Source of the DNA: Myxococcota bacterium
GTDB taxonomy: Bacteria > Myxococcota_A > UBA9160 > PR03
DNA length: 23,181 nucleotides
Direction of reading: 5' to 3'
Assembly: GCA_030066475.1 (NCBI GenBank)
Contig: JASJBO010000010.1
Span: 1-23,181 of the forward strand
The notes beneath the pieces are model-generated. The model did not search any database. It worked only from the letters and a program-made list of their open reading frames with translations, and was not told the DNA's origin. Below, piece after piece: positions 3,696-17,608 of this stretch; position 1 is the stretch's first letter; the number at the start of each line of letters is the position of its first letter. The position numbers and the translations under genes are program-made.

Positions 3696-3706
3696 CTGAG
3701 CTGGTG

Positions 3707-3770
3707 GACTTCGCTCGCCTGCGGCTCGCTGCGCGCGCCCTACGGGCGCTTGCAGGGGGCTTCTGCCGCA
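3707..3770 (+). repeat. 64-bp dispersed repeat, copy 1 (convergent junction)
   Basis: This is a 64-bp element beginning GACTTCG and ending TTCTGCCGCA. It starts 11 bases after the STAND gene's stop and ends 5 bases before the stop of the opposing GFA gene. It aligns without gaps to copies at 9011-9074 (minus) and 16577-16640 (plus), with about 8 mismatches to the latter. The core GCGCCC-TAC-GGGCGC forms a 6-bp stem with a 3-base loop; other copies keep the stem but have TGT or TGC loops. It could be a bidirectional terminator or a REP-like element. Confidence 0.85.
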
Positions 3771-3775
3771 TGCGC

Positions 3776-4192
3776 CTAGCCACGTTGGGGGAACGGCGCG
3801 CCCTCGCTCTGACGCGGCAGGGCGTCGGCGATCTCGACCCACGGCGCCTTCGACCCGACGAAGACGTGGTCCTCGACCTGGCGCCCCGGGTCGCTGTCGA
3901 GCGTGCCGAGGCGCAGGCCCAGCACGGCGGGTATGTCGTCGCGCCGCTTGTACACCGGCGAGCCACAGCAGCTCGCGAAGAAGCGGTGGATGCCGGGGCT
4001 CGACTCCCAGCTCCGCAGCCGCTCCGCGCCCGCGACGACGCGCAGGTCGTCGGCCTTCACGGCGCAGGTCGTCCCGAAGCTCGAGCCCGAGTGCTTCCGG
4101 CACTGCCAGCAGTGGCAGTAGCTCATCGGCCCCACCAGCTCCCCGTCGATCTCGTAGCGGACCTCGCCGCACGCGCACGATCCCCGGAGCAT
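3776..4192 (-). CDS. GFA-family (CENP-V/GFA fold) zinc-binding protein
   Basis: This 138-residue protein matches the GFA family, named after a protein first described as glutathione-dependent formaldehyde-activating enzyme. Most members have no proven substrate, so I assign no reaction. The family's zinc motifs are visible: C-x-C at Cys6/Cys8 (SCACGEV), CHCWQC with Cys26, Cys28 and Cys31, and a late SCCGSPVY (Cys75, Cys76). One oddity is that the late C-x-x-C-G motif has Ala73 where the first Cys is normally found, though Cys75 is close by and might substitute. The ATG at 4192 starts the domain directly (MLRGSCACG). An AGGA lies about 12 bases upstream. There is no signal peptide, so it is cytoplasmic. 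It is tail-to-tail with the STAND regulator, with repeat copy 1 between them, and lies 43 bases downstream of the Kazal protein gene. Confidence 0.88.
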   Translation of the reverse strand: MLRGSCACGEVRYEIDGELVGPMSYCHCWQCRKHSGSSFGTTCAVKADDLRVVAGAERLRSWESSPGIHRFFASCCGSPVYKRRDDIPAVLGLRLGTLDSDPGRQVEDHVFVGSKAPWVEIADALPRQSEGAPFPQRG

Positions 4193-4235
4193 CAGCGCGC
4201 CCAGTCCTACCGACCCTCGCGCCCGCGCCTCCCCC

Positions 4236-6461
4236 TCACGGGAGCGGGAGGGGCAGGAAGGGCGGGCTGCCGATGCCGGGGCCGGGCTTGCGGCCGAAGT
4301 AGCGGCGGAGGACGTTGAAGTCGGGGATGCCGATGCCGCCGTCGCCGTTGTGGTCGCAGCGGGAGTCGTAGTCCGGGTCGCCCTTTTTCGTGCCGAACTT
4401 GCTGCGGAGCACGTTGAAGTCCGGGATCCCGACCAGACCGTCGTTGTTGTAGTCGGGATCGCAGGCGTCGCCGTAGCTCTGGTTGCCGGGTAGCGAGGTG
4501 TCGTCGTCGGTGCCCGCGTCGGCGTCCTTCTGGTCCGGGTTCGGCACCAGGCGGCAGTTGTCCTTGAAGTCCGGCACGCCGTCCTTGTCGGTGTCCTCGA
4601 AGCAGATCGGCGGGACGCACTCGCCCCGGTGCTTGATCTCGACGTGCGCGCAGCGGGCCTCGCAGGCGTTGCCGTAGGTCTCGCCGTCGACGCCGCACAC
4701 CGGGTCGTAGACGTCCGGGCAGGCACACGGCCAGCACTCACCGCCGCGGCAGATCTCGCCCACCGGGCAGTCGTCGTCCTCGCGGCAGCGGTCGCGGCAC
4801 TCGCCCTCGTGCCGGATCGGGACGTGCGCACAGCGCGCCTCGCAGGCGTTGGGATAGGTCATCCCGTCGACGCCGCAGACCGGATCGTAGATCTCGGGGC
4901 AGCCGCACGCCTCGCACTCCTCGTCCTCGCAGATGAAGCCGACGCGGCAGTCGTCGTCGTCGCGGCAGTCGCGCGGGCACTCGCCCACGAACGCGATCTC
5001 GACGTGCGCGCAGCGAGCCTCGCAGGCGTTGCCATAGGTCACGCCGTCGACGCCGCACACCGGCGCGTAGACCAGCGGGCAGATGCAGCGACCGCAGGTC
5101 CCGTCCTCGCAGATCTCGGGCACCTCGCAGTCGTCGTCGTCACGGCACTCGTCGCAGCGGCCCGGCCGCCGCACCTCGACGTGAGCGCAGCGCGCGAAGC
5201 ACGCGTTGTCGTAGGTCTTGCCGTCGGCGCCGCACACCGGTTCGTAGATCTCCGGACAGCTGCAGGACTCGCAGCGGTTCTCCTCGCACACCTCGCCCAC
5301 GGGACAGCCGTCGTCGTCGCGGCAGCCCTCCTCGCAGGGCCCCTCGTAGGCGACCTCGACCCGGGCGCAGTCCGCGCGACAGTCGTTCCCGTAGGTGTGG
5401 CCGTCGACGCCGCACACGGGGTCGAAGACGGCGGGGCAGATACACGGCCTGCAGATGCCGAGCTGCACGGTGCCCGGCACCGGGTGGCAGGACTGGCCGG
5501 GCGGGCACTGCTCGTTCTCGGTGCACCCGCCGCAGGGGCCGGGGTGCGCCACGGTGGTGCCGTGGCAGAAGGCGTCGAGCTCACCGCACGAGTAGGTGTT
5601 GCCGTCCTCGCCGCACACGAAGTCGGGCCGGAGGCAGGCGATCTGGCAGGGCGGCCGGCACTGCTGCGTCGGCGGGAAGCAGATCTCGTCCTCGTCGCAG
5701 TCGTCGTTGTCGCGGCACTCGGGCTCGGGCCGGCACTCGCCTTCGTGGGCGATCTCCACCCCCGCGCACTGGGCGCGGCAGGCGTTGCCGTAGGTGCCGC
5801 CGTCGACGCCGCACACCGGCTCGTAGACCAGCGGGCACGCGCACGGCTCGCGGCAGGGCCCCTCGTGCGTCACCTCGGCGCCGTGGCAGTGGGCGTCGAG
5901 CTCGCCGCAGGCGTAGGTCACGCCGTCGTCGCCGCACACCGGGTCCTCGACGAAGCAGTCGACCGCACAGGGCGGCTGGCAGCGGTCGGTCGGCGGGAAG
6001 CAGATCTGGTCGTCGCGGCAGTCGTCGTTGTCGCGACAGGGCGGCTTGCCGCACTCGCCCTCGTAGGCGACCTCGACCCCCGCGCAGCGGGCGCGACAGG
6101 CGTTGCCGTAGGTGTTGCCATCGACGCCACACACCGGGTCGTAGACGTGCGGGCAGACGCAGTCCTGGTCGCACGGTCCCTCGGAGACGACCTCGGCGCC
6201 GTGGCAGTGCGCGTCGGCCTCGCCGCACACGTAGGTCACGCCGTCGTCCCCGCACACCGGGTCGGGCACCAGGCAGAGGATCTCGCACGGCTTCTGGCAC
6301 TGGTGGGTTGGCGGGTAGCAGATCAGGTCGTCGGGGCAGTCGATCTCGTCGCGGCACAGGTCGGGGCAGATGTCCCCGAGCTGGGCGGCGGCCGGGGGCG
6401 CCGGGAGCAGGGCGAAGACGGAGAGAAAGAGCAGCCCACGGACCAGATTCCACACGCGCAT
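4236..6461 (-). CDS. Secreted Kazal-repeat protein with thrombospondin-3 and dockerin-like C-terminus
   Basis: This is a 741-residue exported, cysteine-rich protein. Residues 1-26 are a signal peptide (LLFLSVFALLPAPPAAA). Residues ~28-618 hold seven canonical Kazal modules (C-x-C-P-x-x-Y-x-P-V-C-G-x-D-G-x-T-Y-x-N) and three shorter variants with CGDDGVTY and DAHCHGAEV. They alternate with about eight short four-Cys linkers of the type CRDDDDC-x4-IC-x4-C. By alignment with ovomucoid-type Kazal domains, the P1 residues of the canonical modules are His, Leu, Ala, Glu, Leu, Glu and Asp. Residues 619-668 are TSP3-like (DTDKDGVPDFKDNC). Residues ~669-725 have two dockerin-type calcium loops (DYNNDGLVGIPD and DHNGDGGIGIPD). 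The ATG at 6461 has a GGAGG ribosome site. Kazal domains are classic serine-protease inhibitors, and the divergent neighbour encodes a secreted serine protease. Inhibition is inferred, not shown; some Kazal-like (follistatin) domains only bind ligands. Confidence 0.93.
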   Translation of the reverse strand: MRVWNLVRGLLFLSVFALLPAPPAAAQLGDICPDLCRDEIDCPDDLICYPPTHQCQKPCEILCLVPDPVCGDDGVTYVCGEADAHCHGAEVVSEGPCDQDCVCPHVYDPVCGVDGNTYGNACRARCAGVEVAYEGECGKPPCRDNDDCRDDQICFPPTDRCQPPCAVDCFVEDPVCGDDGVTYACGELDAHCHGAEVTHEGPCREPCACPLVYEPVCGVDGGTYGNACRAQCAGVEIAHEGECRPEPECRDNDDCDEDEICFPPTQQCRPPCQIACLRPDFVCGEDGNTYSCGELDAFCHGTTVAHPGPCGGCTENEQCPPGQSCHPVPGTVQLGICRPCICPAVFDPVCGVDGHTYGNDCRADCARVEVAYEGPCEEGCRDDDGCPVGEVCEENRCESCSCPEIYEPVCGADGKTYDNACFARCAHVEVRRPGRCDECRDDDDCEVPEICEDGTCGRCICPLVYAPVCGVDGVTYGNACEARCAHVEIAFVGECPRDCRDDDDCRVGFICEDEECEACGCPEIYDPVCGVDGMTYPNACEARCAHVPIRHEGECRDRCREDDDCPVGEICRGGECWPCACPDVYDPVCGVDGETYGNACEARCAHVEIKHRGECVPPICFEDTDKDGVPDFKDNCRLVPNPDQKDADAGTDDDTSLPGNQSYGDACDPDYNNDGLVGIPDFNVLRSKFGTKKGDPDYDSRCDHNGDGGIGIPDFNVLRRYFGRKPGPGIGSPPFLPLPLP

Positions 6462-6613
6462 GGCCGACCTCCGAACGAAGACCCGCAGACCTTAAACCTG
6501 GAAGTTGTCTTGGAGGTGTGACGCGTGGCACGCTTTCCCCTGGGGGGAGAGGTATCGTCTTCAGGTTTCCTTGCGCGAGTCCCGGTCCCGAGCCGATGGG
6601 AGGCCTGGAAGCC
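6462..6613. promoter_or_regulatory. Shared divergent promoter region, Kazal protein / serine protease
   Basis: This ~150-bp gap is the only space between the start of the Kazal gene (6461, minus) and the start of the protease gene (6614, plus), so both promoters must be here. It is less GC-rich than its surroundings, for example around CTTAAACCTGGAAGTTGTC (6491-6509). The Kazal side ends in GGAGG six bases before its ATG. No textbook promoter hexamers stand out. Confidence 0.4.
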
Positions 6614-9055
6614 ATGGCGCGCCCGCGCGATCTCTCGCCGCTCTCCGCGGCACTCGGGATGCTCGTGTCGCTGGGTCTGATGGCTCCGGCACCTGCTCTG
6701 GCGGAGCGGCTCTCCCCGGACGCCCGGGCCCGCCTGCGCAGCGCCCTGGCGGTGAAGCAGCGTCATGCCCCGGCCTTGCTCTCCCGCGCCGACGTGGTGG
6801 GCATCGGCGCCGGCGTGGATGCGGACGGCCGCGCGGTGATCCGCGTGCTGACCGCCCGTCCGCTGCCGGGCCTCCCGGCCACGCTCGACGGCGTGGCGGT
6901 GCGCGAACGCGTGACGGGCCGCCTGCACGCGCTGCGCGGCGCCACCTGCGAGGCCAGCGGCGACGCGGTCTGCGATCCCGACGAGCGCTGGCCGCTGCCG
7001 GTCCCGACCGGCGTCTCGGTCGGCCACCCGAGCATCAGCGCCGGCACCATCGCCGCCCGGGTCACCGACGGCGTGGACGTCCTGGCGCTCAGCAACAACC
7101 ACGTGCTCGCGGCCTCGAACCAGGCGCTGATCGGCGACGCCGTGATCCAGCCGGGCAGCTTCGACGGGGGCTCGCTCGCCGCGGGCGACGAGATCGGCAC
7201 GCTCTTCGACTTCGAGCCGATCGTGTTCTGCGACCTGATCTTCGGCCTGCCGCTCTGCAGCCAGCCGAACTTCATCGACGCGGCCGTCGCGCTCAGCTCT
7301 CCCGGCCAGCTCGGCTTCGCCACCCCGACCGGCGAGCACGGCTCGGAAGCCGGCTACGGCGCGCCGAGCCCCATCCTGCACGCGGCCTATGGCGACCCGA
7401 GCCTGCTGGGCGACGAGGACCTCGGCCAGCTCCAGAACCTGGCCGTCCAGAAGTACGGCCGCACCACCGGCCAGACCACGGGCGTGATCGACACGATCGG
7501 CCTCAGCTCGCTGGTCTGCTACGACGAGCTCTGCACCCTGATCGCCCAGTTCGACGACCAGCTCGCCATCACCGGCCCCTTCAGCGGCCCGGGCGACTCC
7601 GGCTCGCTGGTCGTCACCGACGACGCCGCGGCGCAGCCCGTCGGGCTGCTGTTCGCCGGCAGCGAAACCCAGAGCATCCTGAGCCGCATCGACCTGGTGC
7701 TCGACCGCTTCGGCGTCACGATCGACGACGGCGGCACCACGGGCCCGGTCGTCGACGCGTCGGTCGAGAGCTTCGGGGCGCCGTCGTACGCGATCGTCGA
7801 CGAGACGACCCCCGTCGCCGTCGAGGTCCGCAACCGCGGCACCGAGCCCCTGGCGTCCTTCGACGTGGTCTTCCGCGACGAGACCGAGCTCACCGAGAGC
7901 ACGCTCACGGCGCCCGCGCTGGCGCCGGGCGCCACCGCGCAGCTCGACTTCGACTGGACGCCCACCGCGACCGGCCCGCATACCGTGAGCGTCGAGCTGC
8001 AGCTCGCGGACGACGATCCGGGCAACGACACGGCCGACGCGCAGGTGCCCGTGCTGCTCGAGCCGCCCGGCATCTCGCTGCGCGTGTGGCGGGGGGCGGT
8101 GCGCACCGACCTGTGGACGCTCGTGGACCTCGGCGTGGACTACGGCAGCGAGATGGTCGTGGTCTGCACGCCGCTCTACGACGCGACGGCGATCGGCCCG
8201 CTGGTGGCGCGCGTGCGCAACGCCGCGGGGACGAGCTTCGAGGTCGGGCTGGGGCGGCCCTGGTTCGGCGCCTTCCCGGGGGAGGAGGGCGCCGCGGACG
8301 TGCACTGCATGGCGCTGCGCGCCGGCGTCTACACCGAGGCCGACAGCGGCGTCCGGCTCGAGGCCGTACGCATCGCGGGCTTGGCGACCAAGGACGACAC
8401 GACCTCGTGGGTCGGGTCGAGCCGCAGCTACGCGCAGGCCTACGCGCAGCCGGTCGTGGTCGGTCAGGTCATCTCGCCAGCCACGGGCGGGCTGCCCGGC
8501 GAGCTCGGGGTGTGGTCGGTGTTCTGGGCGCGCGGGCCCACCTCGTTCGACCCGCCCTCCGCCGCCCAGCTCTTCGTGGGCCGGCACACCGCCGAGGACC
8601 CGACCGCGCGCGCACCCGAGGACCTCGCCTACGTCGTGATCGAGGCGGGGCGCGGGCGGATCGGCCAGCGCCCCTATCGGGCCGCGCTCGGCGCCGAGAC
8701 CGTGCGCGGCGTCGACGACGCGCCGCCCCACGTCTACGGGCTGGATCCGCCGTTCGGCCCGGCCCGTACCGCGCTGGCGAGCTCCGCCGGCATGGACGGC
8801 CTCGAGGGCGGCTGGCCGGTGCTGTGGGGTGCCGGCGCCGTCGCGCCCGACGGGCTCGGGCTCGCGATCGAGGAGGACTGGTGGTTCGACCCCGAGCGCT
8901 CCCACACCACGGAGCAGGTCGGCTACCTGATCCTGGGCCCGCGCACCGCCTGCGGGCTGGGCGTCGAGCTGGCGTTGGCGCTGCCGCTGTGGGCCAGGCT
9001 GCGGCGCCTGCGCGGCCGAAGCCCCCTGCAAGCGCCCACAGGGCGCGCGCCGTGA
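6614..9055 (+). CDS. Secreted chymotrypsin-fold serine protease with CARDB and H-type-lectin-like domains and a C-terminal sorting tail
   Basis: The 813-residue protein has a signal peptide at residues 1-31 (ending APALA). The protease domain (~60-370) shows a complete S1-like triad: His163 in SNNHVLA, Asp222 in FIDAAVAL and Ser329 in GPGDSGSLV. A CARDB-type beta-sandwich follows (~380-480; VAVEVRNRGTEPL, DDDPGND). The next region (~485-775) resembles bacterial H-type-lectin-like repeats (VARVRNAAGTSFEVGL, YVVIEAGRG, VGYLIL). The C-terminus reads TACGLGVELALALPLWARLRRLR: Cys-Gly, a hydrophobic stretch, then Arg, like a MYXO-CTERM or PEP-CTERM-type sorting signal. The ATG at 6614 has GGAGG 11 bases upstream; an in-frame ATG at 6596 is the alternative. 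The last 15 codons, including the stop, lie inside repeat copy 2, so the final RSPLQAPTGRAP is repeat-derived. It is likely surface-attached or secreted; the substrate is unknown. Confidence 0.88.
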   Translation: MARPRDLSPLSAALGMLVSLGLMAPAPALAERLSPDARARLRSALAVKQRHAPALLSRADVVGIGAGVDADGRAVIRVLTARPLPGLPATLDGVAVRERVTGRLHALRGATCEASGDAVCDPDERWPLPVPTGVSVGHPSISAGTIAARVTDGVDVLALSNNHVLAASNQALIGDAVIQPGSFDGGSLAAGDEIGTLFDFEPIVFCDLIFGLPLCSQPNFIDAAVALSSPGQLGFATPTGEHGSEAGYGAPSPILHAAYGDPSLLGDEDLGQLQNLAVQKYGRTTGQTTGVIDTIGLSSLVCYDELCTLIAQFDDQLAITGPFSGPGDSGSLVVTDDAAAQPVGLLFAGSETQSILSRIDLVLDRFGVTIDDGGTTGPVVDASVESFGAPSYAIVDETTPVAVEVRNRGTEPLASFDVVFRDETELTESTLTAPALAPGATAQLDFDWTPTATGPHTVSVELQLADDDPGNDTADAQVPVLLEPPGISLRVWRGAVRTDLWTLVDLGVDYGSEMVVVCTPLYDATAIGPLVARVRNAAGTSFEVGLGRPWFGAFPGEEGAADVHCMALRAGVYTEADSGVRLEAVRIAGLATKDDTTSWVGSSRSYAQAYAQPVVVGQVISPATGGLPGELGVWSVFWARGPTSFDPPSAAQLFVGRHTAEDPTARAPEDLAYVVIEAGRGRIGQRPYRAALGAETVRGVDDAPPHVYGLDPPFGPARTALASSAGMDGLEGGWPVLWGAGAVAPDGLGLAIEEDWWFDPERSHTTEQVGYLILGPRTACGLGVELALALPLWARLRRLRGRSPLQAPTGRAP

Positions 9056-9074
9056 GGCAAAGCCGAACGAAGTC
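9011..9074 (-). repeat. 64-bp dispersed repeat, copy 2 (inverted; overlaps protease 3' end)
   Basis: Read on the minus strand this begins GACTTCGTTCGGCTTTGCC and ends TTCGGCCGCG. It differs from copy 3 at about 5 of 64 positions. The core stem GCGCCC/GGGCGC is intact with loop TGT. It starts one base after the stop of the minus-strand dockerin-like gene (9076-9078) and runs into the last 45 bases of the plus-strand protease gene. It therefore again sits at a convergent junction, and it supplies the protease's final residues. Confidence 0.85.
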
Positions 9075-9075
9075 C

Positions 9076-10053
9076 CTATGGACAGGGCACGGTGCCGGCA
9101 CAGGCCAGGCCCGACGGCCCGGGCGGCCCACCGAAGAAGCTGCGGAACACGTTGAAGTCGGGGATCCCGATCGCGCCGTCGCCGTTGTGGTCGACGGCGG
9201 GATCGAAGCCGGGGTCGTCCTCCGTCAGCCCGAACTGGGCGCGGAACACGTTGAAGTCGGGGATGCCGACCGCGCCGTCGTTGTTGTAGTCGGGGTCGCA
9301 GCGGTCGCCGAAGCCGTCGCGGTCGGCGTCGCGGTGCACCGGGTCGTCGTGCTCCATGCAGGCGTCGGAGGGGTCGGGGATGCCGTCGCCGTCGACGTCC
9401 GGCTGCGGGGCGCGCAGCGCGATCGAGTCGACGTAGGCCCAGGACTGCAGGTTGGTGGTCACCACTGGCCGGTTCGCGCACGCGTAGGGAAAGGGCTCCC
9501 CACAGTATCGCGAGGCCATGTTGCCCGCATTCAGGGTGAGCAGGAGCACGTTGACGGGGAGCTCGCGCAGGTCGACCGAGAGGAGCCGCCAGCCGGTGCT
9601 CCGGAGGGCGAGTCCGGAGCTGGAGGGGTTGAGCTCCCGCGCCGAGACGTGGTGCACGGCGATGCCGTTGACCAGGACCACGAAGGCCGGATCGTCCCAG
9701 TCGCAGCAGTCGCGGGAGTAGACGTTGTACCAGACGTCGAGGATCGGGCGGTCGGGGTCCAGGGGGTCGAGGCCCGTGAACTGGCTGATCAGGCTGCTGG
9801 TCCAGGGGCTCGTGCCGTGGCGCCCGGTCACGTCGTCGCGCTCGTCGCCGTCGAAGTCCACCGAGCCGATCGCAGCGGCGTAGCTGCCGCCGTGCACCAC
9901 GTCGCTCTGCAGGCGGAAGCCACCCCCTCCGCCCCAGGGCGCGAGCTCGCCGGTCTCGAAGTCGCCGTTCACGAGATCCGCGAACTGCGCCTGTGTCGGC
10001 AGGCCGACGGATACCACGACAGCGGCGAGCAGGGGAGCGGCAGCGGCTCTCAT
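9076..10053 (-). CDS. Secreted protein with NGDFE-type beta-sandwich domain and dockerin-like C-terminus
   Basis: The 325-residue protein has a signal peptide at 1-23 ([16 protein letters not shown]). The region starting [15 protein letters not shown] (~27-215) has the signature of the galactose-binding-like beta-sandwich found in many secreted and carbohydrate-binding bacterial proteins. It includes a DSIAL strand near its end and a Cys-Cys pair (DCCDWDD). A TSP3-like linker follows ([14 protein letters not shown]). Residues 253-325 carry two dockerin-type calcium loops ([12 protein letters not shown] and [12 protein letters not shown]), each followed by FNVFR. The extreme C-terminus is [13 protein letters not shown], shared with the plus-strand protein ending at 11746 and with the fossil at 13382. 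The ATG at 10053 is the only start that gives a signal peptide. It is the second of two minus-strand genes here, 97 bases after the 142-residue exported protein. Glycan binding is an inference from the fold signature. Confidence 0.88.
9079..9297 (-). repeat. Inverted repeat arm A: dockerin-coding DNA
   Basis: These 219 bases encode the dockerin-like tail of the 325-residue protein. They match, in inverted orientation, 11510-11728 inside another gene, including a perfect 44-base run centred on the second [10 protein letters not shown] codons. The arms lie about 2.2 kb apart. They could recombine to invert the segment between them or exchange sequence by gene conversion. Confidence 0.8.
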
Positions 10054-10150
10054 GCGCGCAGGAGGTTGCAGGCCCCGTGCCAGCGCTCGAGCCGCGCGGG
10101 GCTGCCCCGGTCGGCTCGGTGGGACGGCGTGCCCCAGCGAGGTGGGGCCC

Positions 10151-10579
10151 TCAGGCCTCGGGCTCGTAGTAGACCGCGATCCGCTCCGTCACCATCCGAA
10201 TGCTGCGCAGCAGCGGCTCGATCTGCTTGCTCGGCACCGCGTCGCGCGCCACCTGGCGCACGGCGCGCACGGCTTCTCGGAGCTGGAAGAAGAAGGGCTC
10301 CGTGGCCTCCGGTTCGGGGTCGCCGCGCAGACGGTCGAGATAGGTGCGCGCCAGCTCGTGCGTGCGCTCCATCTGGCGCACGGCCGCGTCGCGCTGACGC
10401 TGCTGGATGACGGTCTCCTGCCCGAGCTGCCGGGGCGCCAACGCCAGCACGCGCCCGGTCAGCTCGACCAGCTCGACCGCGAGGCTCTCGACCTGCTCGG
10501 GATCCCACTCCACGGCGGGCGCCGAGACCGGTGCGAGCAGGGCGGCGAGCAGCAGCAGACCGAGAGAGAACCGCTTCAT
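10151..10579 (-). CDS. Small exported helical protein, unknown function
   Basis: This is a 142-residue protein with a signal peptide at residues 1-22 ([19 protein letters not shown]). The mature part is Glu/Arg/Gln-rich and appears almost wholly alpha-helical ([53 protein letters not shown]). It has no Cys and no motif I recognise. The ATG at 10579 is preferred over an in-frame ATG 45 bases upstream because it begins the signal peptide and has GGAGG 11 bases before it. That GGAGG lies in a perfect 6-bp hairpin. The next minus-strand gene, a dockerin-like protein, follows after 97 bases, so the two may be co-transcribed. A periplasmic structural or accessory role is possible, but no function is assigned. 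Confidence 0.75.
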
Positions 10580-10774
10580 GCGGAGGAACGCCTCCGGGGA
10601 GCTTCGACGTCGAGGATGGCACATCCATTCGACGCAGCGAGGCGGACAGATCGACCCACCTGCGTCTCCGGATGCCTCGCTCCGCCGGCGCGAGGCGACG
10701 AAGGGCTCGGCCGCTTCGGCACGCGCCTTGCTTCAAGCGGAGGCTTCCCGAGAGGCGACTTCCAGGAGACCTTC
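10580..10774. promoter_or_regulatory. Divergent intergenic region, helical exported protein / dockerin-like protein
   Basis: This 195-bp gap separates head-to-head genes. Besides the start-proximal hairpin (10581-10596) it holds an inverted repeat GCCTCG...CGAGGC around 10674-10697. The plus-strand gene has AGGAG at 10764-10768, seven bases before its ATG. No clear promoter hexamers were identified on either strand. Confidence 0.35.
10581..10596 (-). promoter_or_regulatory. Hairpin masking the ribosome site of the 142-residue exported protein
   Basis: On the minus strand the sequence CGGAGG-CGTT-CCTCCG is a perfect 6-bp stem with a 4-base loop, ending one base before the ATG at 10579. The left arm contains the GGAGG ribosome site, so folding would hide it. 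This is seen directly; any regulatory effect is inferred. Confidence 0.4.
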
Positions 10775-11746
10775 ATGCAGCGCATCACGCCGGCCCTTGC
10801 CGCGGCCGCCCTGTTCCTTGCGACCCCCGCCTGGGCCATCCAGATCGACGAGGGTCCCAGCGACTCGCCGCCGGGGGTGGAATCCCAGAGCTTCAGCGGC
10901 TTGCCGGATACCGGATCGGGTTTGACGGTCACGTACACCGACGTCGACCTGGAACAGACCGCGAACCTCTACTTCGGCATCCGGAACGACCGGGATGTGA
11001 ACGGCTTCTCGATGGATGGGTCCGGGATCAGCGGAGACGAGATCTTCCGCTTCGCGTCCCTGACCGCGACCTCGGTCGTCTACTCGGGCACCACCTTCGT
11101 CGAGAGCGTCGAGTACACGGGCTCGATTGCGACGCGCATGACCCTCACCTTCATGGGTCCGGGCGATACGGTCAGGGACGCGACGACGGCGGCCCTGAAC
11201 GGCCCCCTGGGCGATGTCGAGGTGCTCTGGCGCCTCGCGGGCGACCTTTCCGTCAACATCCTGATCGAGGCCCAGGTTCCGCCCGGCGTATCGAACGCGG
11301 GCAACTGGGAGCCCGGTCGCGATCTGTTCGATCGCCTCGGGACGGGCGGCGTGTCGACGGGCAGCGCCTCGTCGGTGGACTGGGGCTTCTACTACGAGGA
11401 GGCGCCGGACTTCGACGAGGACGGCGTGCCCGACGCCCTCGACAACTGCGTCGAGACGCCCAACGCGAGCCAGCGGGATACCGCCCGCGACGGCTACGGC
11501 GACGCCTGCGACCCCGACTACAACAACGACGGCGCGGTGGGCATCCCCGACTTCAACGTGCTGCGCGGCCAGTTCGGGCTGACGGACGAGGACCCGGGCT
11601 TCGATCCCGCCGTGGACCACAACGAGGACGGGGCGGTCGGCATCCCCGACTTCAACGTGTTCCGCAGCTTCTTCGGTGGGCCGCCGGGTCCGTCGGGGCT
11701 GGAGTGCGCCGGGACGGTGCCGTGTCCCGACGACGGTCCGATGTAG
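10775..11746 (+). CDS. Secreted protein with TSP3-like and dockerin-like C-terminus
   Basis: The 323-residue protein has a signal peptide at 1-21 ([18 protein letters not shown]). Residues ~22-210 form a Thr/Ser/Asp-rich region that looks like a beta-sandwich ([21 protein letters not shown]... style strands). I do not recognise its family. A TSP3-type linker [14 protein letters not shown] follows. Residues 246-300 hold two dockerin-type calcium loops ([12 protein letters not shown] and [12 protein letters not shown]). The second loop keeps the calcium-ligand pattern although Asn/Gly is replaced by Glu. The tail is [18 protein letters not shown], five residues longer than its paralogue's. The ATG at 10775 has AGGAG at a seven-base spacing. 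It converges on the glycosidase-like gene with only 16 bases between the stops, and here the 64-bp repeat is absent. It is presumably exported; no partner with a recognisable cohesin domain is seen in the window. Confidence 0.88.
11510..11728 (+). repeat. Inverted repeat arm B: dockerin-coding DNA
   Basis: This is the plus-strand counterpart of 9079-9297: 73 codons with no length difference and a 44-base identical run starting ATCCCCGACTTCAACGTG. Such DNA identity beyond protein conservation suggests recent duplication or gene conversion. Confidence 0.8.
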
Positions 11747-11762
11747 TCGCGCCGCCCCGCGC

Positions 11763-13346
11763 TCAGCGTGCCGCGGCGGCGAGGGCGGCCTCGACCGCGG
11801 CACGCGAGCGCTCGAGCGTGCCGTCCTGGAAGGCGAGGGTGGCGACGAGGCCGGGGCCTCCCGGTACCGCGCCCGGCTTCCAGCGGCCCAGCTCGTGGAC
11901 GCCGGTGCGGCCCTCGGGCTCGCCCTCGCACAGGTGGCCGCAGCGCAGCGCGTAGCGCCGCGTCCAGGCGGGCGCATCCATCCACCAGGCGCGCTGGAAC
12001 AGCGGGAAGAGCGCCAGCAGGGCGTCGTAGTCGTACTCGGCCGCCAGCAGCAGCTCGGGCCGGGCCGCGCGCAGCCGCTCGCACAGGGCGGCGAGGCCGG
12101 GTGCCACGGCGTGGTCGGGGTCGTTGGTCCACACCTCGGTGGTGTCGAGGAAGACCGCGTCGAACCCGAAGCGGGCGAGCAGCGCCTCGATCTGCTCGGC
12201 CAGCGCCTCGCGCCAGGCCGGATGCCCCGGATTCAGCCAGCCCTGCCAGCCGGTGTCGTGCGCGCGCGAGAGGTCCCAGTCGGGGGTGTTGCCGTGGAAG
12301 CGGTTGCCGGTGGCGCTCTTCAGGAAGACGCTCGGGTCGAGCCCGCGGAAGCGCGGCAGCCGGACGTTGGCGCAGTGGGCGCCGAACATCGGCATCAGGT
12401 GGACGCCGAGCCGGCGCGCCTCGTCGCAGAGCGCGGCGAAGCCGGCCTCGCCACCGAGGCGCGGGTCGGGACGGTAGTCGCCGTACTGCCAGTAGTAGCG
12501 GCCCTCCCAGCCGGGCAGGTAGGCGAGCACGCGGGCCGGATCGATGCGCGCGGCCACGAAGCGCAGCACCTCGGCCATCGCCGCGTAGTCGAGGAACACC
12601 CGCCCGGTCCAGTGCATGCCGTGCAGCGTCGCGACCAGGCGCAGCTCGCGGGCCCAGCCGGGCAGGTCGCTGCGCCGCGCCAGGGGGACGAGGCCGTGCG
12701 CGCGCTCGAGCCAGGCCACGTGCTCGGCCTCGACCGTGCCTGGGTCGGCGTCGGGGACGACGACGAAGTCGGGGGTTGCGAGCGTCGGAGCGAAGCCTGG
12801 CGCCGCCTCCTCGTGGATCAGCTCCAGGCAGCCGCGCCCGTCGAGCGGGCCCCAGCGCTCGCGGAAGGCCGTGAAGCGCTTCTCGCGCACCTCGCGATCC
12901 TCGCAGCGCAGCGCCCGGGTCGCGGAGCCCGCGCGGGCGAAGAGCAACGGCGTGTGCAGGCGCCCCGGGTAGACGAAGCGCTCGCCGAACTCGGGCACCT
13001 CGCTCCAGCGCGCGCCGTCCACCGAGACCGAGAGCGGCGCCTCGAGGTCGCGCAGCAGGAGCTTCGCGCAGCGCAGCGGGACCGGCGCGCGCGCCTCGAC
13101 CCGCAGCCGCACGGCGCCGCCGGCCTCGCGCCGGGCCTCGAGCAGGCAGCTTCCGTCCGCTCGTTCCTGTCCGCTGGCTCTCGAGAGCGCGGAAGCGCGC
13201 ACCGTCACCCAGTCGGCACCGCTCTCGACCCGCACCGCCTCGGGGTCGATGCCGTAGAGGTTCTCGAGCGTCACGAGCTGGACCGATAGCCGCAGACCGA
13301 ACGCCTCGAAGAGCGGGTCGCCCAGGTCGAAGCTCGCGAACTGCAC
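11763..13346 (-). CDS. Glycoside-hydrolase-like TIM-barrel protein
   Basis: This 527-residue protein has no signal peptide. It looks like a two-part glycosidase: an N-terminal beta-rich domain (~1-180) and a TIM-barrel-like domain (~200-510). Barrel hallmarks include VLAYLPGWEGRYYWQYGDY, a helix-strand unit ending RRLGVHLMPMFGAH, and FDAVFLDTTEVW, where Asp401 sits at a strand end as retaining-glycosidase nucleophiles do. In LLLAAEYDYD, Glu437 is a plausible acid/base. I recall similar uncharacterised proteins related to alpha-galactosidase-like clans, but cannot name a family or substrate with confidence. The start is GTG at 13346; an in-frame TAA lies four codons upstream and no strong ribosome site is visible, so a later start remains possible. 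It converges on the plus-strand dockerin-like gene. Being cytoplasmic among many exported proteins, it might process imported oligosaccharides; that is inference. Confidence 0.7.
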   Translation of the reverse strand: MQFASFDLGDPLFEAFGLRLSVQLVTLENLYGIDPEAVRVESGADWVTVRASALSRASGQERADGSCLLEARREAGGAVRLRVEARAPVPLRCAKLLLRDLEAPLSVSVDGARWSEVPEFGERFVYPGRLHTPLLFARAGSATRALRCEDREVREKRFTAFRERWGPLDGRGCLELIHEEAAPGFAPTLATPDFVVVPDADPGTVEAEHVAWLERAHGLVPLARRSDLPGWARELRLVATLHGMHWTGRVFLDYAAMAEVLRFVAARIDPARVLAYLPGWEGRYYWQYGDYRPDPRLGGEAGFAALCDEARRLGVHLMPMFGAHCANVRLPRFRGLDPSVFLKSATGNRFHGNTPDWDLSRAHDTGWQGWLNPGHPAWREALAEQIEALLARFGFDAVFLDTTEVWTNDPDHAVAPGLAALCERLRAARPELLLAAEYDYDALLALFPLFQRAWWMDAPAWTRRYALRCGHLCEGEPEGRTGVHELGRWKPGAVPGGPGLVATLAFQDGTLERSRAAVEAALAAAAR

Positions 13347-13381
13347 GAGCGTCGCTTAGCGCGTCGCGCGGCGCGCGTCGA

Positions 13382-13429
13382 TCAGGGGCAGGGGATCGTG
13401 CCGGCGCAGACCAGTCCGGAGGGATTCGC
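13382..13429 (-). pseudogene. Fossil C-terminal tail of a fourth dockerin-like gene
   Basis: Translated on the minus strand, these 16 codons read ANPSGLVCAGTIPCP then TGA. This matches the extreme C-terminus of the two dockerin-like proteins nearby ([13 protein letters not shown]). Upstream in the same frame similarity fades after ~5 residues and no calcium loops or FNVFR motif remain. No intact gene reaches this tail: the preceding PEP-CTERM gene stops at 13559. The best reading is the leftover end of a deleted or replaced dockerin-like gene. Chance is unlikely because the stop codon position and both Cys are kept. Confidence 0.65.
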
Positions 13430-13508
13430 GAACCCGCACATTACTGCCGGTCCGTGAAGGAGCTGGGGTGCCTTCGCACGCCCGCGCGGTCGGGAGCCAG
13501 ATGCAGAA

Positions 13509-13536
13509 GCGGCGGCGAGTGCGCACTCGCCGCCGC
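13509..13536 (-). terminator. Perfect 28-bp palindrome downstream of PEP-CTERM gene
   Basis: The half-site GCGGCGGCGAGTGC is followed immediately by its exact reverse complement, giving 14 paired bases (12 or so in RNA after loop formation). It lies 22 bases past the stop of the PEP-CTERM gene. It has no long T-tract, but position and strength suit a transcription terminator or mRNA 3'-end stabiliser. Confidence 0.6.
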
Positions 13537-13558
13537 GCGTAAGAACGAATGCCGGTCG

Positions 13559-14221
13559 TTAGCGACGGCGGCGCGTGGCCAGGACGATCGTGGTGAAGCC
13601 TCCGGCGAAGAGCAGGAAGCCGCCCGGCTCGGGCATCGCGGGGGTCGGCGCCACGTAGGGAACCACGCCGGCGACCAGATCGACCATCACGGGCATGCCC
13701 TCGACCTCGAAGCCGATCAGGTACTTGTCCTCTTCGCCGATCCAGGGGTAGGTCGCCGCCATGTCCTCGCCGTCCGGGTTGGCCGACGCGTCCGTGCTGT
13801 AGATGACGTCGCTTCCCGCTTCCTCGAAGCTGGCCACGAAGGCGATCGGCCCGGTCCCGGGCGTGAAGGTGCTCTGGATGGTGAAATCGTCCCAGTCGTA
13901 GATCCGGCCGTTGTTGAAGTCGATCACGGCGATCTGGCTCGTCATGCCGATCGTGACGTCGTCGCCGGGCTCGAAGATGGTGATGATCTCGCTGGGGTCG
14001 CTCTCGAAGTAGAAGCCGAAGGAGCTGGCCTGGCCGAGCTGCGCGGGGATGTCGCGCATCTCGAGCGAGGCAACCCAGTCCTCGTTGACGAAGAGCTCCG
14101 TCCCGTCGTCGGCACCGAAGTCCGACGGGGGCGTGTAGTGCTCGAGCGGAAGCGCCTGCGCGGTGCTGCCAGCGAAGGCCATCAACGTGATTGCGAACAA
14201 GAAGATTCCGAGGGATTTCAT
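13559..14221 (-). CDS. PEP-CTERM exosortase-sorted protein, unknown function
   Basis: The 220-residue protein starts with a signal peptide (SLGIFLFAITLMAFAGSTAQA) and ends with a textbook PEP-CTERM tail: PEPGG at about 197-201, a hydrophobic helix and RRRR at the very end. Proteins with this tail are recognised and cleaved at the inner membrane by exosortase and usually end up in exopolysaccharide or at the surface. The mature part is acidic and beta-rich (FGFYFESDPSEIITIFEPGDD, FVASFEEAGSDVIY) without a recognised family. I chose the second of two adjacent ATGs (14221 rather than 14224) because GGAG then sits five bases upstream. A 28-bp palindrome follows the stop. The gene-free 375 bp upstream must hold its promoter. 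No exosortase gene lies in the window. Confidence 0.9.
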   Translation of the reverse strand: MKSLGIFLFAITLMAFAGSTAQALPLEHYTPPSDFGADDGTELFVNEDWVASLEMRDIPAQLGQASSFGFYFESDPSEIITIFEPGDDVTIGMTSQIAVIDFNNGRIYDWDDFTIQSTFTPGTGPIAFVASFEEAGSDVIYSTDASANPDGEDMAATYPWIGEEDKYLIGFEVEGMPVMVDLVAGVVPYVAPTPAMPEPGGFLLFAGGFTTIVLATRRRR

Positions 14222-14596
14222 CATCGCTCCCAAGCACACCTTCGACTTCACCATCGAGACCCAGCCCACCTTGGACAGCTCACCTTAGGCCACCCGATAT
14301 GCCAAGGACCCACAACTCCCCGGCATCCTCCGCGGTGCCATGACGGAACGAGGCGATGATGCCCGGTCCGGACCGCCATGTCTACAGAAAAATCGCCTGG
14401 GATCGGCGACTTGCACAGAATCTCCGAGCGCCTCCAGGCGCGACGAATTGCCGCGGGTCGAGGGGAAAAACCCCGCCGGGGAACGCTCGAGAGCGCCGGT
14501 CGAGCCGCAGCGCGTAGAGCTGCGGGGCAGAATGCACCAAATTGGTGTCTCGGGCCCTCGGAGTCTTCCCCGAGGGGCCCGATCCGTTGGTGACGT
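14222..14596. other. 375-bp gene-free region dense in inverted repeats
   Basis: No credible gene is present here. The stretch lies between the start of the PEP-CTERM gene and the stop of the metalloprotease gene. Seven inverted repeats fall within 14351-14582: AGGCGAT (14351-14357) with ATCGCCT (14392-14398), enclosing the palindrome CGGTCCGGACCG (14364-14375); GCGCCT-CC-AGGCGC (14428-14441); GGGG-AAAAA-CCCC (14462-14474); CGCTC-GA-GAGCG (14484-14495); CCGCAG/CTGCGG (14505-14525); CACCAA-A-TTGGTG (14535-14547); and a long hairpin at 14550-14582. The CCCC at 14471-14474 can also pair with GGGG at 14478-14481, giving alternative folds. This could be a structured leader or small RNA, or stacked terminator and operator sites. 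No known riboswitch consensus was recognised. Confidence 0.4.
14550..14582 (-). terminator. Probable terminator hairpin of the metalloprotease gene
   Basis: A 12-bp stem (TCGGGCCCTCGG paired with CCGAGGGGCCCGA, one bulged G) with an eight-base loop lies 15 bases past the metalloprotease stop at 14597. On the minus strand it is followed by AGACACCAATTTGGTG rather than a run of T, so it is not a classical intrinsic terminator, but its place fits transcript-end formation. Confidence 0.5.
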
Positions 14597-15436
14597 CTAC
14601 GCCGATGCGCTTCGGCGCCGAGCCCGGCGGCAGGCGCCGGCCCCGAGGAGGCCAGCCGCGACGAGGTGTGCGGAGCCCGGCTCGGGCACGCGCGCGGGGT
14701 CGAGGTCGACGGACCCGAAGCCGTTCGCCGCCGCCGCGCCCAGCACGTCGGCCGCACTCAGGAGCCGGCGTTCGCCCACGTCGAAGTAGGGGTACATCAG
14801 GGCGCCGGCGAGCGTGAGGTGGTCGGCGTCCGCGGTGACCGGCAGCTCCGCCCCGGCGAAGGGAAGCGGTGCTGCGACATCGACGTCGCCGTCGAGCGTC
14901 TCGCTGCCGTGCGGCCCGAACTCGCCGACGAAGCCGAGGGTGTGTCCGATCTCGTGCGCCACCACCGAGAGCAGGTCGTAGCCGAAGGCGGAGTCGAGCG
15001 TGGTCGCACGCAGGGTGCGGCCGACGTTGACGAGACCCGCCGAGCTGCCCAGGTCCTGCTCGATCCCGGGCAGCACGAGGAACTCGTCGTCGTCGTCCGG
15101 CGACGCGTCGACGAACCACCGGGCGCGGTTGCTGACCCTGAGCAAGCCGCCCCCGCTGCGCCCGCTGCCGGTGGCGAAAGCGAAGCCGAGCTGACCGTAC
15201 GGCAGCGGCGCCCAGCCGTAGAAGACCGTCACCGTGTGGTCGTCGAGCAGGGCGCGCTCCCACAGACCGGCGGCGGCGCGGAACACGCGGTCCAGGTTGC
15301 CTCCACCAGCTACCAGCGTGTCGGGCGGCGCCGGGCCCGCCAGCCGCATGCCGACGATCGTCAGGGCGGCCGCGGAGTGGCTCAGCGTCAGGGCGAGGGC
15401 GAGCGCGAGACAGGGGAGCAGCGAGCGCAGCAGCAT
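14597..15436 (-). CDS. PEP-CTERM-tagged zinc metalloprotease (metzincin-like)
   Basis: The 279-residue protein has a signal peptide at 1-24 (SLLPCLALALALTLSHSAAA). The zinc site HEIGHTLGF lies at 161-169, with His161 and His165 as ligands and Glu162 as catalytic base. Instead of the usual metzincin His/Asp a few residues on, the sequence continues VGEFGPHGS, so the third ligand is unclear; His206 in DADHLTLAGALMYP is a candidate, and Met214 there looks like the Met-turn. The C-terminus is VPEPGSAHLVAAGLLGAG followed by CRRARRR, a PEP-CTERM sorting signal (Pro252-Glu-Pro254). PEP-CTERM metalloproteases with HEIGH-x-LGF are known as a family without clear substrates. The ATG at 15436 has GGAGA about 12 bases upstream. 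It is the second protease in the window and carries a different surface-sorting tail from the serine protease at 6614. Confidence 0.88.
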   Translation of the reverse strand: MLLRSLLPCLALALALTLSHSAAALTIVGMRLAGPAPPDTLVAGGGNLDRVFRAAAGLWERALLDDHTVTVFYGWAPLPYGQLGFAFATGSGRSGGGLLRVSNRARWFVDASPDDDDEFLVLPGIEQDLGSSAGLVNVGRTLRATTLDSAFGYDLLSVVAHEIGHTLGFVGEFGPHGSETLDGDVDVAAPLPFAGAELPVTADADHLTLAGALMYPYFDVGERRLLSAADVLGAAAANGFGSVDLDPARVPEPGSAHLVAAGLLGAGACRRARRRSASA

Positions 15437-15636
15437 CAGGACGGGTCTCCGCGAGAGCGTTCCCCGTTCCCGGTCGCGGACCCTTCTATCAGAGTCGCTT
15501 CAGGCTTGGCAAGCACGCCGTGTGCCGCGGCGTCTCACTTCGGGACAGCCTGCACCAGACCTGCCGCTGGAGCGCGCGCTCGTCGGCTCGACCGTGGCAC
15601 GCTTCCTGCTCCGCTCTCCGGACGAGGAGGCGAGCC
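15437..15636. promoter_or_regulatory. Divergent intergenic region, metalloprotease / Yip1-like protein
   Basis: This 200-bp gap lies between head-to-head genes. It includes a short less GC-rich stretch (CTTCTATCAGAGTCGCTTC at 15483-15501). The plus-strand gene has GAGGAGG at 15624-15630. No convincing promoter hexamers or operator repeats were recognised. Confidence 0.3.
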
Positions 15637-16209
15637 ATGAGTGACGGCATTCCGGAGGCGGCGCCCGGGTCGGGCGCTGCGCCCGCGCGCTCGCTGGGCG
15701 CGCGCTGGCTCGCAGCGGCGCGGCTCGACGCGGCGCTCTACGACGAGATCGAGCACGACCCCGGCGCGCTCTGGCAGTCCGCGCTGGTGGTGGTCGTCGC
15801 CGGCCTGGCGCGCGGAGTCGGGAGCTTTGCCGTCGAGGGCTGGGTCGGCCTGCTGGCCGGTACCGTGGCGGGTGCGCTGCTCTGGTTCACGACCAGCGCC
15901 GTGGTCCTGGCCGTCGGCATCCGGGTGCGGCCGGGGGCCTCGAGCTTCGAGGAGCTGCTGCGCACGCTGGGCTTCGCCGCGGCGCCGCTCTGGCTGCTGG
16001 TGCTCGGGGCGCTGCCGCTGGGCTTCGTGCGCGAGGTGCTCTGGCTGGTGATCCACGCCTGGGCCGTGCTCGCGCTGGTCGTGGCGGTGCGGGCCGCGCT
16101 CGATACCGACACGCGTCGCGCCCTGCTGGTGTGCGCGGGCGCGATCGGTCTGGGCCTGGCGCTGCTGCTGATCCTGAGCCTGCTCTTCTTCGGCCTGACG
16201 GCCGCCTGA
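15637..16209 (+). CDS. Yip1-like multi-spanning membrane protein
   Basis: The 190-residue protein has a ~40-residue soluble N-terminus followed by about five hydrophobic segments: SALVVVVAGLARGVGSF, LLAGTVAGALLWFTTSAVVLAVGI, a segment around APLWLLVLGALPLGFV, EVLWLVIHAWAVLALVVAV and ALLVCAGAIGLGLALLLILSLLFF. The layout and the conserved-looking motif SFEELLRTLGFAAAP match the bacterial Yip1/YIPF-like membrane family, whose role in bacteria is unclear. There is no signal peptide; the first segment would insert the protein in the inner membrane. The ATG at 15637 has a strong GAGGAGG ribosome site at a six-base spacing. A second small membrane protein follows 52 bases downstream on the same strand and may be co-transcribed. 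Confidence 0.82.
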   Translation: MSDGIPEAAPGSGAAPARSLGARWLAAARLDAALYDEIEHDPGALWQSALVVVVAGLARGVGSFAVEGWVGLLAGTVAGALLWFTTSAVVLAVGIRVRPGASSFEELLRTLGFAAAPLWLLVLGALPLGFVREVLWLVIHAWAVLALVVAVRAALDTDTRRALLVCAGAIGLGLALLLILSLLFFGLTAA

Positions 16210-16261
16210 CGGCCGCCTCCGCGCGCCGGGTGCGGGTGCCGTCCGCCTGCGCTACGGCTGC

Positions 16262-16570
16262 ATGACGATGGATGTGCTGCTCGCCGGCTGCCTCGCCGTC
16301 TACTTCGCCCCGTGCGTGGTGGCGTCGTGGAAGGAGCACCCGCGCGAGGGCTGGATCTTCGTGCTGACCCTGCTCACCGGCTGGACGGGGATCGGCTGGG
16401 CGGCCGCCCTGATCTGGGCGGCGCGTCCCGTGGCGGCGCGGGAGGAGCCTGCGGTGCTGGCGCGCCGCGAGCACCTGCGCCTGCTCGCGGGGGGACGCGA
16501 CGAGATCGCGGGCAGGCGACCGCCCCGGCGCAGCGGTGCCGCCCCCGAAGCCGAGCGCTCGCTGCGCTAG
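16262..16570 (+). CDS. Superinfection-immunity-family small membrane protein
   Basis: The 102-residue protein has two predicted membrane helices (VLLAGCLAVYFAPCVVASW and IFVLTLLTGWTGIGWAAALIWAA) and a basic cytoplasmic tail. The second helix carries the GWTGIGW-x-x-ALIWA signature of the superinfection immunity family named after phage T4 Imm. Many bacteria carry such proteins outside any prophage, and most have no tested role, so defence against phage DNA entry is only one possibility. The tail, rich in Arg and Glu (AARREHLRLL-type), is unlike T4 Imm. The ATG at 16262 or the ATG two codons later are both possible; no strong ribosome site is seen. It lies 52 bases after the Yip1-like gene. 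It ends six bases before repeat copy 3, opposite the TRAP operon's last gene. No phage genes are nearby. Confidence 0.72.
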   Translation: MTMDVLLAGCLAVYFAPCVVASWKEHPREGWIFVLTLLTGWTGIGWAAALIWAARPVAAREEPAVLARREHLRLLAGGRDEIAGRRPPRRSGAAPEAERSLR

Positions 16571-16576
16571 CTGTCT

Positions 16577-16640
16577 GACTTCGTTCGGCTTCGCCTCACT
16601 GCGCGCGCCCTGCGGGCGCTTGCAAGGGGCTTCTGCCGCG
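16577..16640 (+). repeat. 64-bp dispersed repeat, copy 3 (convergent junction)
   Basis: This copy begins GACTTCGTTCGGCTTCGCC and ends TTCTGCCGCG. The stem GCGCCC-TGC-GGGCGC is conserved. It starts six bases after the stop of the superinfection-immunity-like gene and ends two bases before the stop of the opposing TPR gene. Like copy 1, the upstream coding end reads GCTAGCTG around the stop codon, so similarity may reach slightly further left. Confidence 0.85.
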
Positions 16641-16642
16641 CC

Positions 16643-17608
16643 TCAGTATCCCCTCGAGGGCGTCGGCGGTGCGGACGGTGGGCCGGTGCTCGCGTTCGCG
16701 AGGGGACCCGGGGCCTGCTCGCTCGTCCCGGTCGCCTGGTCGCGCACCTGATCGACGTCGAGGAAGCCGATCCGCGAGTAGCCGCACGCCTTCTGCGGCG
16801 ACTCGATCAGGTGTCGGGCGGCGGCCTGGTCCTGGGCGTCGGTCGAGAGCCGGGTCGGCATCGCGAGGGCTGCGTGCAGCACGCGGAAGCCCGCCTCGCT
16901 GCGCTCCGGGTCGTCGCGGCGCTCGCCCAGGCACAGCAGCACGGCGCCGTGCTCGACGTGGTAGTCGATGCGCTCGGGCGAGATCGCCAGCGCCCTGCGG
17001 ATGTGATCGAGCGCGCGATCGGCGTCGCCCCGCACGCCGAACACGAACTGGAGCCAGAACCACTCCGGCACGAGGCGGTAGAAGCCCGCACTCGCACTGT
17101 ACAGGTTGCCGAGCGTGGTGTTGCCGTTGGCGTCGCGGTGCTGCGGGGGCTCGCGCAGGCCCAGGTCGAGCAGCGCGCGCAGGTCGCGCGCGTGACGGGC
17201 GCCCCACACCAGTCCCTTCTGCTCGACGCTGCGTCCCCACGATGCGTAGCGCCAGAGCGCGCAGGCCCCGCAGCGCGGGTTGCGCTCCAGACCGCGCGCC
17301 GACCACTCCGCGGCGCGCTCGAACAGCGCCATGCGCTGCGGGCTGCCGATCGCGTGCTCTTCGCCCGCGCGCCAGTAGCTGCGGGCGGCGCGCCAGCACG
17401 CGTCGGAGCTCGCGGGGTCGCGGCGCGCGACGGTCTCGAAGTGGCGCGCGGACTCGATCAGCGCGCCTTCCGCTTCGAGCGCCGTGGCTTGGGACCAGAG
17501 CTGCGCGAGATCTGCGGCTTCCGAGGCGGTTGCGGGTGTCGCGAAGATCAGGAACAGCGCCGCGAGCCGAAGCGCGCGGCCCGTGGGGGGGAGCACCGCG
17601 CTGCGCAC
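16643..17608 (-). CDS. Exported TPR protein, last gene of the TRAP operon
   Basis: The 321-residue protein has an N-terminal signal sequence (ALRLAALFLIFATPATASEA). The mature part is built of helical TPR-like pairs, for example LWSQATALEAEGALIESARHF, AARSYWRAGEEHAIG and ALDHIRRALAISPERIDYH. A central segment GNTTLGNLY with FYRLVPEWFWLQFVFGV, rich in aromatics, separates the N- and C-terminal helices. The last ~30 residues are a Pro/Ser/Gly-rich disordered tail. The start is GTG at 17608; another GTG four codons later is possible. It begins 42 bases after the stop of the 387-residue TPR gene and is the end of the leftward run beginning with the crotonase. Periplasmic location is inferred from the signal. 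By context it may assist the TRAP transporter, as TatT does, but that has not been shown for this protein. Confidence 0.8.
   Translation of the reverse strand: MRSAVLPPTGRALRLAALFLIFATPATASEAADLAQLWSQATALEAEGALIESARHFETVARRDPASSDACWRAARSYWRAGEEHAIGSPQRMALFERAAEWSARGLERNPRCGACALWRYASWGRSVEQKGLVWGARHARDLRALLDLGLREPPQHRDANGNTTLGNLYSASAGFYRLVPEWFWLQFVFGVRGDADRALDHIRRALAISPERIDYHVEHGAVLLCLGERRDDPERSEAGFRVLHAALAMPTRLSTDAQDQAAARHLIESPQKACGYSRIGFLDVDQVRDQATGTSEQAPGPLANASTGPPSAPPTPSRGY

What the first reader, a model, noticed from the sequence alone, without database searches (positions are those of the whole stretch)
3707..16640. 64-bp repeat found three times, each at a tail-to-tail gene junction
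Copies at 3707-3770 (+), 9011-9074 (-) and 16577-16640 (+) align without gaps over 64 bases. I count about 5 mismatches between copies 2 and 3 and about 8 between copies 1 and 3. Every copy lies between two convergent genes. Flanking stops are 11 and 5 bases away (copy 1) and 6 and 2 (copy 3); copy 2 is 1 base from one stop and overlaps the other coding end. The stem GCGCCC/GGGCGC is identical in all while the loop changes (TAC, TGT, TGC), as expected if the fold matters. The end starting GACT always follows a gene's stop. This suggests a family of bidirectional 3'-end elements, perhaps spread by a REP-type mechanism. The fourth convergent junction (11746/11763) lacks it.
Basis: seen in the sequence. 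Interest (0 to 1): 0.7.

Follow-up and report, generated by a model that had tools for sequence, protein, structure and literature searches.

The report
Dispersed hairpin repeat between convergent genes
A 64-base hairpin-forming repeat sits at three tail-to-tail gene junctions of an unidentified bacterium and looks like a new sequence family of the well-known short extragenic palindromic repeats, an ordinary kind of genome feature.

Summary
The three 64-bp copies are real, ungapped and at the stated places. Essentially only the 64 bp is shared, so this is a dispersed repeat and not a duplicated gene block. The copies occupy 3 of 4 convergent junctions among 17 in my gene calls. That placement, close to both 3' ends, matches published REP-like repeats (PMC3733652). 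Copy 2 replaces the native end of a conserved protein and adds 14 element-coded residues. The tail motif is in none of the 93 other proteins listed, which points to insertion. No canonical terminator was found. The long hairpin has no compensatory change, and all four substitutions in its paired columns break a pair. A small 5' hairpin has two compensated pairs, but it is not the most stable fold and is suggestive only. GTAG/CGTC tags are absent at the element ends. The host genome is not held, and the core pattern gave two chance-like hits in genome contigs. Copy number, junction statistics and transposase stay untested. Verdict: a new, untagged member of a known kind; a two-way 3'-end role is plausible but unproven.

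The parts
3707..3770 (+). copy 1 of the 64-bp repeat, convergent junction (stops 3695 / 3776)
9011..9074 (-). copy 2 of the 64-bp repeat, convergent junction (ORF ends 9055 / 9076); overlaps the coding end of the + gene
16577..16640 (+). copy 3 of the 64-bp repeat, convergent junction (stops 16570 / 16643)
3735..3749 (+). inner hairpin of copy 1 (6-bp stem, loop TAC)
9032..9046 (-). inner hairpin of copy 2 (loop TGT)
16605..16619 (+). inner hairpin of copy 3 (loop TGC)
3713..3729 (+). possible small 5' hairpin of copy 1 (element columns 7-23), where columns 8-22 and 12-18 differ from the other copies in a compensated way
   Evidence: not the minimum-energy fold
9052..9068 (-). possible small 5' hairpin of copy 2
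   Evidence: not the minimum-energy fold
16583..16599 (+). possible small 5' hairpin of copy 3
   Evidence: not the minimum-energy fold
9011..9055 (+). element-coded C-terminal tail (14 residues and stop) of the CARDB-domain protein gene (about 6614-9055, start estimated)
11747..11762 (.). fourth convergent junction, 16 bp, without the repeat

Best explanation
The repeat is a short dispersed extragenic palindromic element (REP-like, untagged, non-coding) that inserted, or was kept, almost exactly between the stop codons of convergent genes. Shown: three diverged copies with essentially unrelated flanks, a tight fit between the stops, and an element-coded gene end at copy 2. Inferred: both converging transcripts run into the element, and its G+C-rich hairpin becomes the shared 3' end, protecting or helping to terminate each mRNA. 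Also inferred: it was spread by a transposase acting in trans that is encoded elsewhere in the genome.
For: Three copies, 5 to 11 mismatches, with flanks that do not align apart from a short AGCTG word before copies 1 and 3. All 3 sit at convergent junctions: 3 of 4 convergent among 17, 0.6% by junction draw; by gap length with elements taken out the convergent gaps are 60 of 1558 bp. The fourth convergent gap is 16 bp, the size left in copy 1's gap of 80 bp when the element is subtracted. Copy 2: the C-terminal signal stops at the element edge, followed by 14 element-coded residues; the tail motif is in 1 of 94 listed proteins, the window's own. The gene on the other side loses similarity to its paralogue at 9080, five bases before the element. 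Published REPs lie mainly between convergent and tandem genes, in the two genomes diagrammed mostly under 20 bp from both 3' ends when convergent, and can provide stop codons (PMC3733652 section 15).
Against: n = 3 in one window, and several gene starts are my estimates. No genome-wide count. No tag motif at the element ends, no transposase in the 15 ORFs scanned. At 64 bp it is longer than the 20-40 bp given for REPs. No U-tract terminator. No tandem junction of the 10 has a clear copy, although published REPs use tandem junctions as well. No empty site from a relative was seen.
Confidence: 0.62

Rival explanations
1. A selfish insertion without function: it lands anywhere and survives only in gaps where it harms nothing, and convergent gaps are the most tolerant.
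For: Copy 2 seems to have altered the 3' end of a neighbour. The long stem tolerates broken pairs. No terminator signature.
Against: Tandem and divergent gaps hold far more non-coding DNA (1498 of 1558 bp by my gene calls) yet have no clear copy. Two compensated pairs in the possible 5' hairpin, weak as they are.
Confidence: 0.22
2. A dedicated bidirectional transcription terminator that duplicated among convergent genes, with its hairpin acting on both strands without a U-tract.
For: Convergent placement of 3 of 3 copies. A hairpin is predicted on both strands. The inner stem is invariant and G+C-rich.
Against: 0 terminator-like sites by consensus scan in 3500-17000, shuffles 2.3. The conservation includes unpaired ends (columns 1-7) that a terminator would not need. 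Folding z-scores only -0.57 to -1.95.
Confidence: 0.12
3. A repeated DNA site for a chromosome-binding protein, placed where converging polymerases pile up supercoils.
For: Long conserved sequence outside the stem; convergent placement. That BIMEs and REPs bind proteins is in the abstract of PMC2817692 (start of abstract seen in a search listing); gyrase and IHF as the binders are recalled.
Against: No binding partner or binding evidence; nothing here tests it.
Confidence: 0.04

Closest known systems
REP elements (GTAG- and CGTC-tagged, Di Nocera 2013, PMC3733652)
   Same: Short palindromic repeats, mostly intergenic, next to gene 3' ends, convergent and tandem junctions favoured, may overlap coding ends and supply stops (section 15 read).
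   Different: 64 bp rather than 20-40 bp; no GTAG or CGTC tag at the element ends; copy number and transposase unknown here.
Other stem-loop repeats (Bordetella Bor, Yersinia Ype, Enterococcus Efa; PMC1590033)
   Same: Stem-loop repeats found near coding regions, Ype and Efa preferentially near the 3' ends of genes (passages read). PMC3733652 names Bordetella among hosts of REP-like families without terminal motifs (passage).
   Different: Other hosts; I did not compare their sequences with this one, and Bor is said to resemble E. coli REPs.
Rickettsia palindromic elements (RPE)
   Same: Palindromic repeats that can add residues to proteins (PMC3733652 section 15), as copy 2 does at a C-terminus.
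   Different: Many RPEs lie inside genes; here the copies lie at junctions. R. conorii RPE sequences end in CGTC (passage), absent at these ends.

Membership tests
REP elements | short palindromic (hairpin) repeat | tested here: met
   15-bp inner hairpin with invariant stem in all three copies; the whole unit, 64 bp, is longer than the 20-40 bp of the definition
REP elements | extragenic, at 3' sides of genes, convergent or tandem junctions | tested here: met
   3 of 3 copies at convergent junctions, though copy 2 overlaps a coding end
REP elements | terminal GTAG or CGTC tag | tested here: not met
   GTAG, CGTC, GGAG and their complements looked for in the copies plus 17-20 bases each side; the only match is CTAC spanning the loop of copy 1
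REP elements | high copy number in the genome | not testable with these tools
   host genome not held; 3 copies in 23 kb
REP elements | associated RAYT (Y1) transposase | tested here: inconclusive
   none in 15 window ORFs scanned with Pfam, which are not all genes of the window; rest of the genome unavailable
Rho-independent terminator | G+C-rich stem followed by a T-run | tested here: not met
   0 sites in 3500-17000, both strands
Structured RNA of a known Rfam family | match at gathering score | tested here: not met
   0 matches in the window
tRNA gene | ARAGORN tRNA call | tested here: not met
   0 genes
Integron attC site | paired R/L boxes with GTTRRRY end | not tested
   only looked at by eye; box consensus recalled, no scan run

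The most novel reading that the evidence does not exclude
A structured 3'-end element reserved for convergent gene pairs, with a covarying 5' hairpin, that works as a two-way transcription boundary without a U-tract and spreads as a mobile unit, so that a transposable element supplies the terminators of a lineage.
Probability: 0.1. Interest if true: 0.5.

Novelty: new member of a known kind. Interest (0 to 1): 0.22.

Why it matters
Short palindromic repeats shape the 3' ends of many bacterial genes. In the listings of five literature searches (12 to 15 papers shown of up to 529, all 8) I saw no title on such a family in myxobacteria, and a sixth search returned no paper; I opened only three papers. 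PMC3733652 does list GTAG repeats in D. alkenivorans and G. uraniireducens (section 5), which I recall as deltaproteobacteria in the older sense. If the present family is abundant, its copies would be a natural set for testing whether G+C-rich bacteria use mobile hairpins as shared 3' ends. Copy 2 also shows a repeat rewriting the end of a probably secreted protein. The kind of thing is well known, so the interest is modest.

Tried and rejected
Duplication of a gene block: rejected, because the flanks of the three copies do not align, apart from a short AGCTG word before copies 1 and 3 that stretches that pair's match to 71 nt (D17). The paralogues 9076-10053 and about 10772-11746 share 324 nt at their ends, but only one has the repeat next to it.

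Fourth copy: a covariance model from the three copies, run without filters on the window, gave 108 matches up to E 10, only the three copies at high score (87 to 95 bits). The best other match is 13502-13552 (-), 19.9 bits, E 0.0025; it starts 6 bases after a stop at a tandem junction and holds a 28-bp perfect palindrome. I treat it as a separate 3'-end hairpin, since only short flank words are shared and the calibration is rough; it could be a remote relative. Six further matches have E 0.05 to 0.09, one of them the reverse strand of copy 1 itself.

Relatives elsewhere. Core pattern in genome contigs: 2 matches, neither with the six-base stem nor with the element's flanks, judged chance. Viral contigs, three patterns: 0. 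Plasmids: 3 weak partial matches, E 0.2 to 0.8. Phages: none. Protein database with one of six element frames: no candidate. One genome-contig scan was allowed and it found something, so no second was made; the metagenome cap was 0 and I did not try it. A divergent family in relatives could have been missed by the strict pattern.

Covariation: the RNAalifold long hairpin has 0 compensated pairs and 4 broken cells of 60. The three-hairpin structure has 2 compensated pairs and 1 broken cell of 54, but 51 of 500 shuffles do as well, and sliding partners by -3 still gives one such pair. My Monte Carlo gave 3.1% for two compensated pairs in one register and 0.6% when also within 20 bases, while a single such pair anywhere arose in 92% of runs; it was run after seeing the pattern. 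Both compensations come from copy 1 alone. In all three copies the minimum-energy fold is a long hairpin (-33.0, -32.2, -31.1), 6.7 to 9.1 kcal/mol better than the three-hairpin form; in copy 1 it is in a shifted register. One search used a structure string out of register in helices 2 and 3 and is replaced.
Full report
Observation. The three copies lie at 3707-3770 (+), 9011-9074 (-) and 16577-16640 (+). They align over 64 columns without a gap, 52 invariant and 12 variable. Mismatches are 5 (copies 2 and 3), 8 (1 and 3) and 11 (1 and 2). A core pattern with up to 3 mismatches finds these three and nothing else in the window; 100 shuffles give a mean of 0.00. The flanks do not align, apart from a short AGCTG word before copies 1 and 3. 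The statement that the GACT end always follows a stop is true but empty, since both sides of a convergent junction are 3' sides.

Setting. From ORFs and family scans (Pfam on 15 ORFs; NCBIfam on 7) I drew 18 genes (listed in the script), with several starts estimated by me and three of the drawn genes (10151-10624, 21663-22528, 22567-end) not scanned at all. The 17 junctions are 4 convergent, 3 divergent and 10 tandem. The copies occupy 3 of the 4 convergent ones. Three random distinct junctions would all be convergent in 0.6% of draws, 1.1% if divergent ones are left out; by gap length with the elements taken out, convergent gaps make up 60 of 1558 bp. These figures rest on three copies and my gene calls, and the gap used at copy 2 is the observed 20 bp, since that copy overlaps coding sequence.

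Copy 2 as an insertion. The gene ending at 9055 encodes a CARDB-domain protein. A search with its residues 400-813 listed 94 proteins including itself, out of 7994 candidates scored. In 34 of the 94 my motif test found the CGxGxE-type signal within the last 110 residues; in the 33 others the length from that cysteine to the end has a median of 26 residues, 22 to 66. The window protein has 20 residues from the cysteine to the element edge, then 14 residues read from the element, RGRSPLQAPTGRAP. The motif of that tail occurs in 1 of 94, itself. So the native end was most likely replaced by the element. On the other side, similarity between the gene ending at 9076 and its paralogue stops at 9080, with five bases between it and the element. 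Insertion is the simple reading; I have no empty site from a relative.

Fold. Single-strand folding is only modestly better than shuffles (z -0.57 to -1.95 over three copies and both strands). RNAalifold's long hairpin has 20 pairs, none compensated, with 4 broken cells of 60. Substitutions are somewhat rarer in its paired columns (4 of 40 against 8 of 24, Fisher p 0.043). A second arrangement has a small 5' hairpin (columns 7-23), the inner hairpin (24-48) and a small 3' hairpin (52-61). There, columns 8-22 (C-G or T-A) and 12-18 (C-G or G-C) are both compensated in the same register, and 1 of 54 cells is broken. Against it: it was found after the fact, comes from copy 1 alone, 51 of 500 shuffles score as high, and the minimum-energy fold of every copy is a long hairpin, 6.7 to 9.1 kcal/mol better. 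A Monte Carlo gives 3.1%, or 0.6% with a span limit. It is a lead.

Function. No U-tract terminator was found in 3500-17000, and no Rfam family or tRNA matches the window. The element could still cap both mRNAs or assist termination as a bare hairpin; that is inference.

Distribution. The host genome is not held. Among the few named proteins of the CARDB listing are 'Myxococcota bacterium' (64% identity) and 'Deltaproteobacteria bacterium' (64%); three others, with other domain make-up and 41 to 48% identity, are named Planctomycetaceae, Thiohalocapsa and Balneolaceae. So the window probably comes from the myxobacterial lineage; this is inference. The core pattern gave 2 chance-like matches in genome contigs, a collection of 84,980 species, none in viral contigs with three patterns, nothing convincing in plasmids and none in phages. 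The exact family therefore seems confined to a poorly sampled lineage, though the pattern is strict.

Comparison with what is known. PMC3733652 (abstract, sections 5 and 15, and passages read) reports that REPs lie mainly between convergent and tandem genes, that convergent ones are mostly under 20 bp from both 3' ends in the two genomes diagrammed, and that they may supply stop codons. It also mentions families without terminal motifs. PMC1590033 (passages read) reports that stem-loops prefer convergent over divergent gaps in all bacteria it studied. Of PMC12306157 I read the outline and abstract. The placement seen here is thus expected of this class. The element lacks the GTAG/CGTC tag at its ends and is longer, so I do not call it a REP proper; it resembles one in placement.

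Verdict. Real, non-random, ordinary in kind, new in sequence as far as searched.

Noticed in passing
window 13502-13552 (-): Perfect 28-bp palindrome (13509-13536) 22 bases after a stop codon at a tandem junction, followed by TTCTGC; possibly a terminator without a U-tract, with weak resemblance to the repeat (19.9 bits).
   Followed up: partly
window about 8950-9010 and homologues P0011-P0046: C-terminal CGxGxE...RRRR-type signal in 33 listed homologues; no NCBIfam model matched that end of the window's protein at E up to 1. Looks like a surface sorting tag resembling MYXO-CTERM (resemblance from recall and the start of the abstract of PMC11980579).
   Followed up: partly
window 9080-9403 and 11404-11727: Two inverted paralogous gene ends, 84% alike, with thrombospondin type 3 repeat matches (weak in one); the Kazal gene end 4279-4477 is 77-79% alike to both.
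   Followed up: no
window 4617-6356: Gene with seven Kazal-type protease inhibitor stretches in Pfam and DNA repeats spaced about 180 and 320 bp.
   Followed up: no
window 13562-15436: Two neighbouring genes with PEP-CTERM-like C-terminal tails, all matches below the curated cut-offs, one weakly like a metalloprotease family.
   Followed up: no
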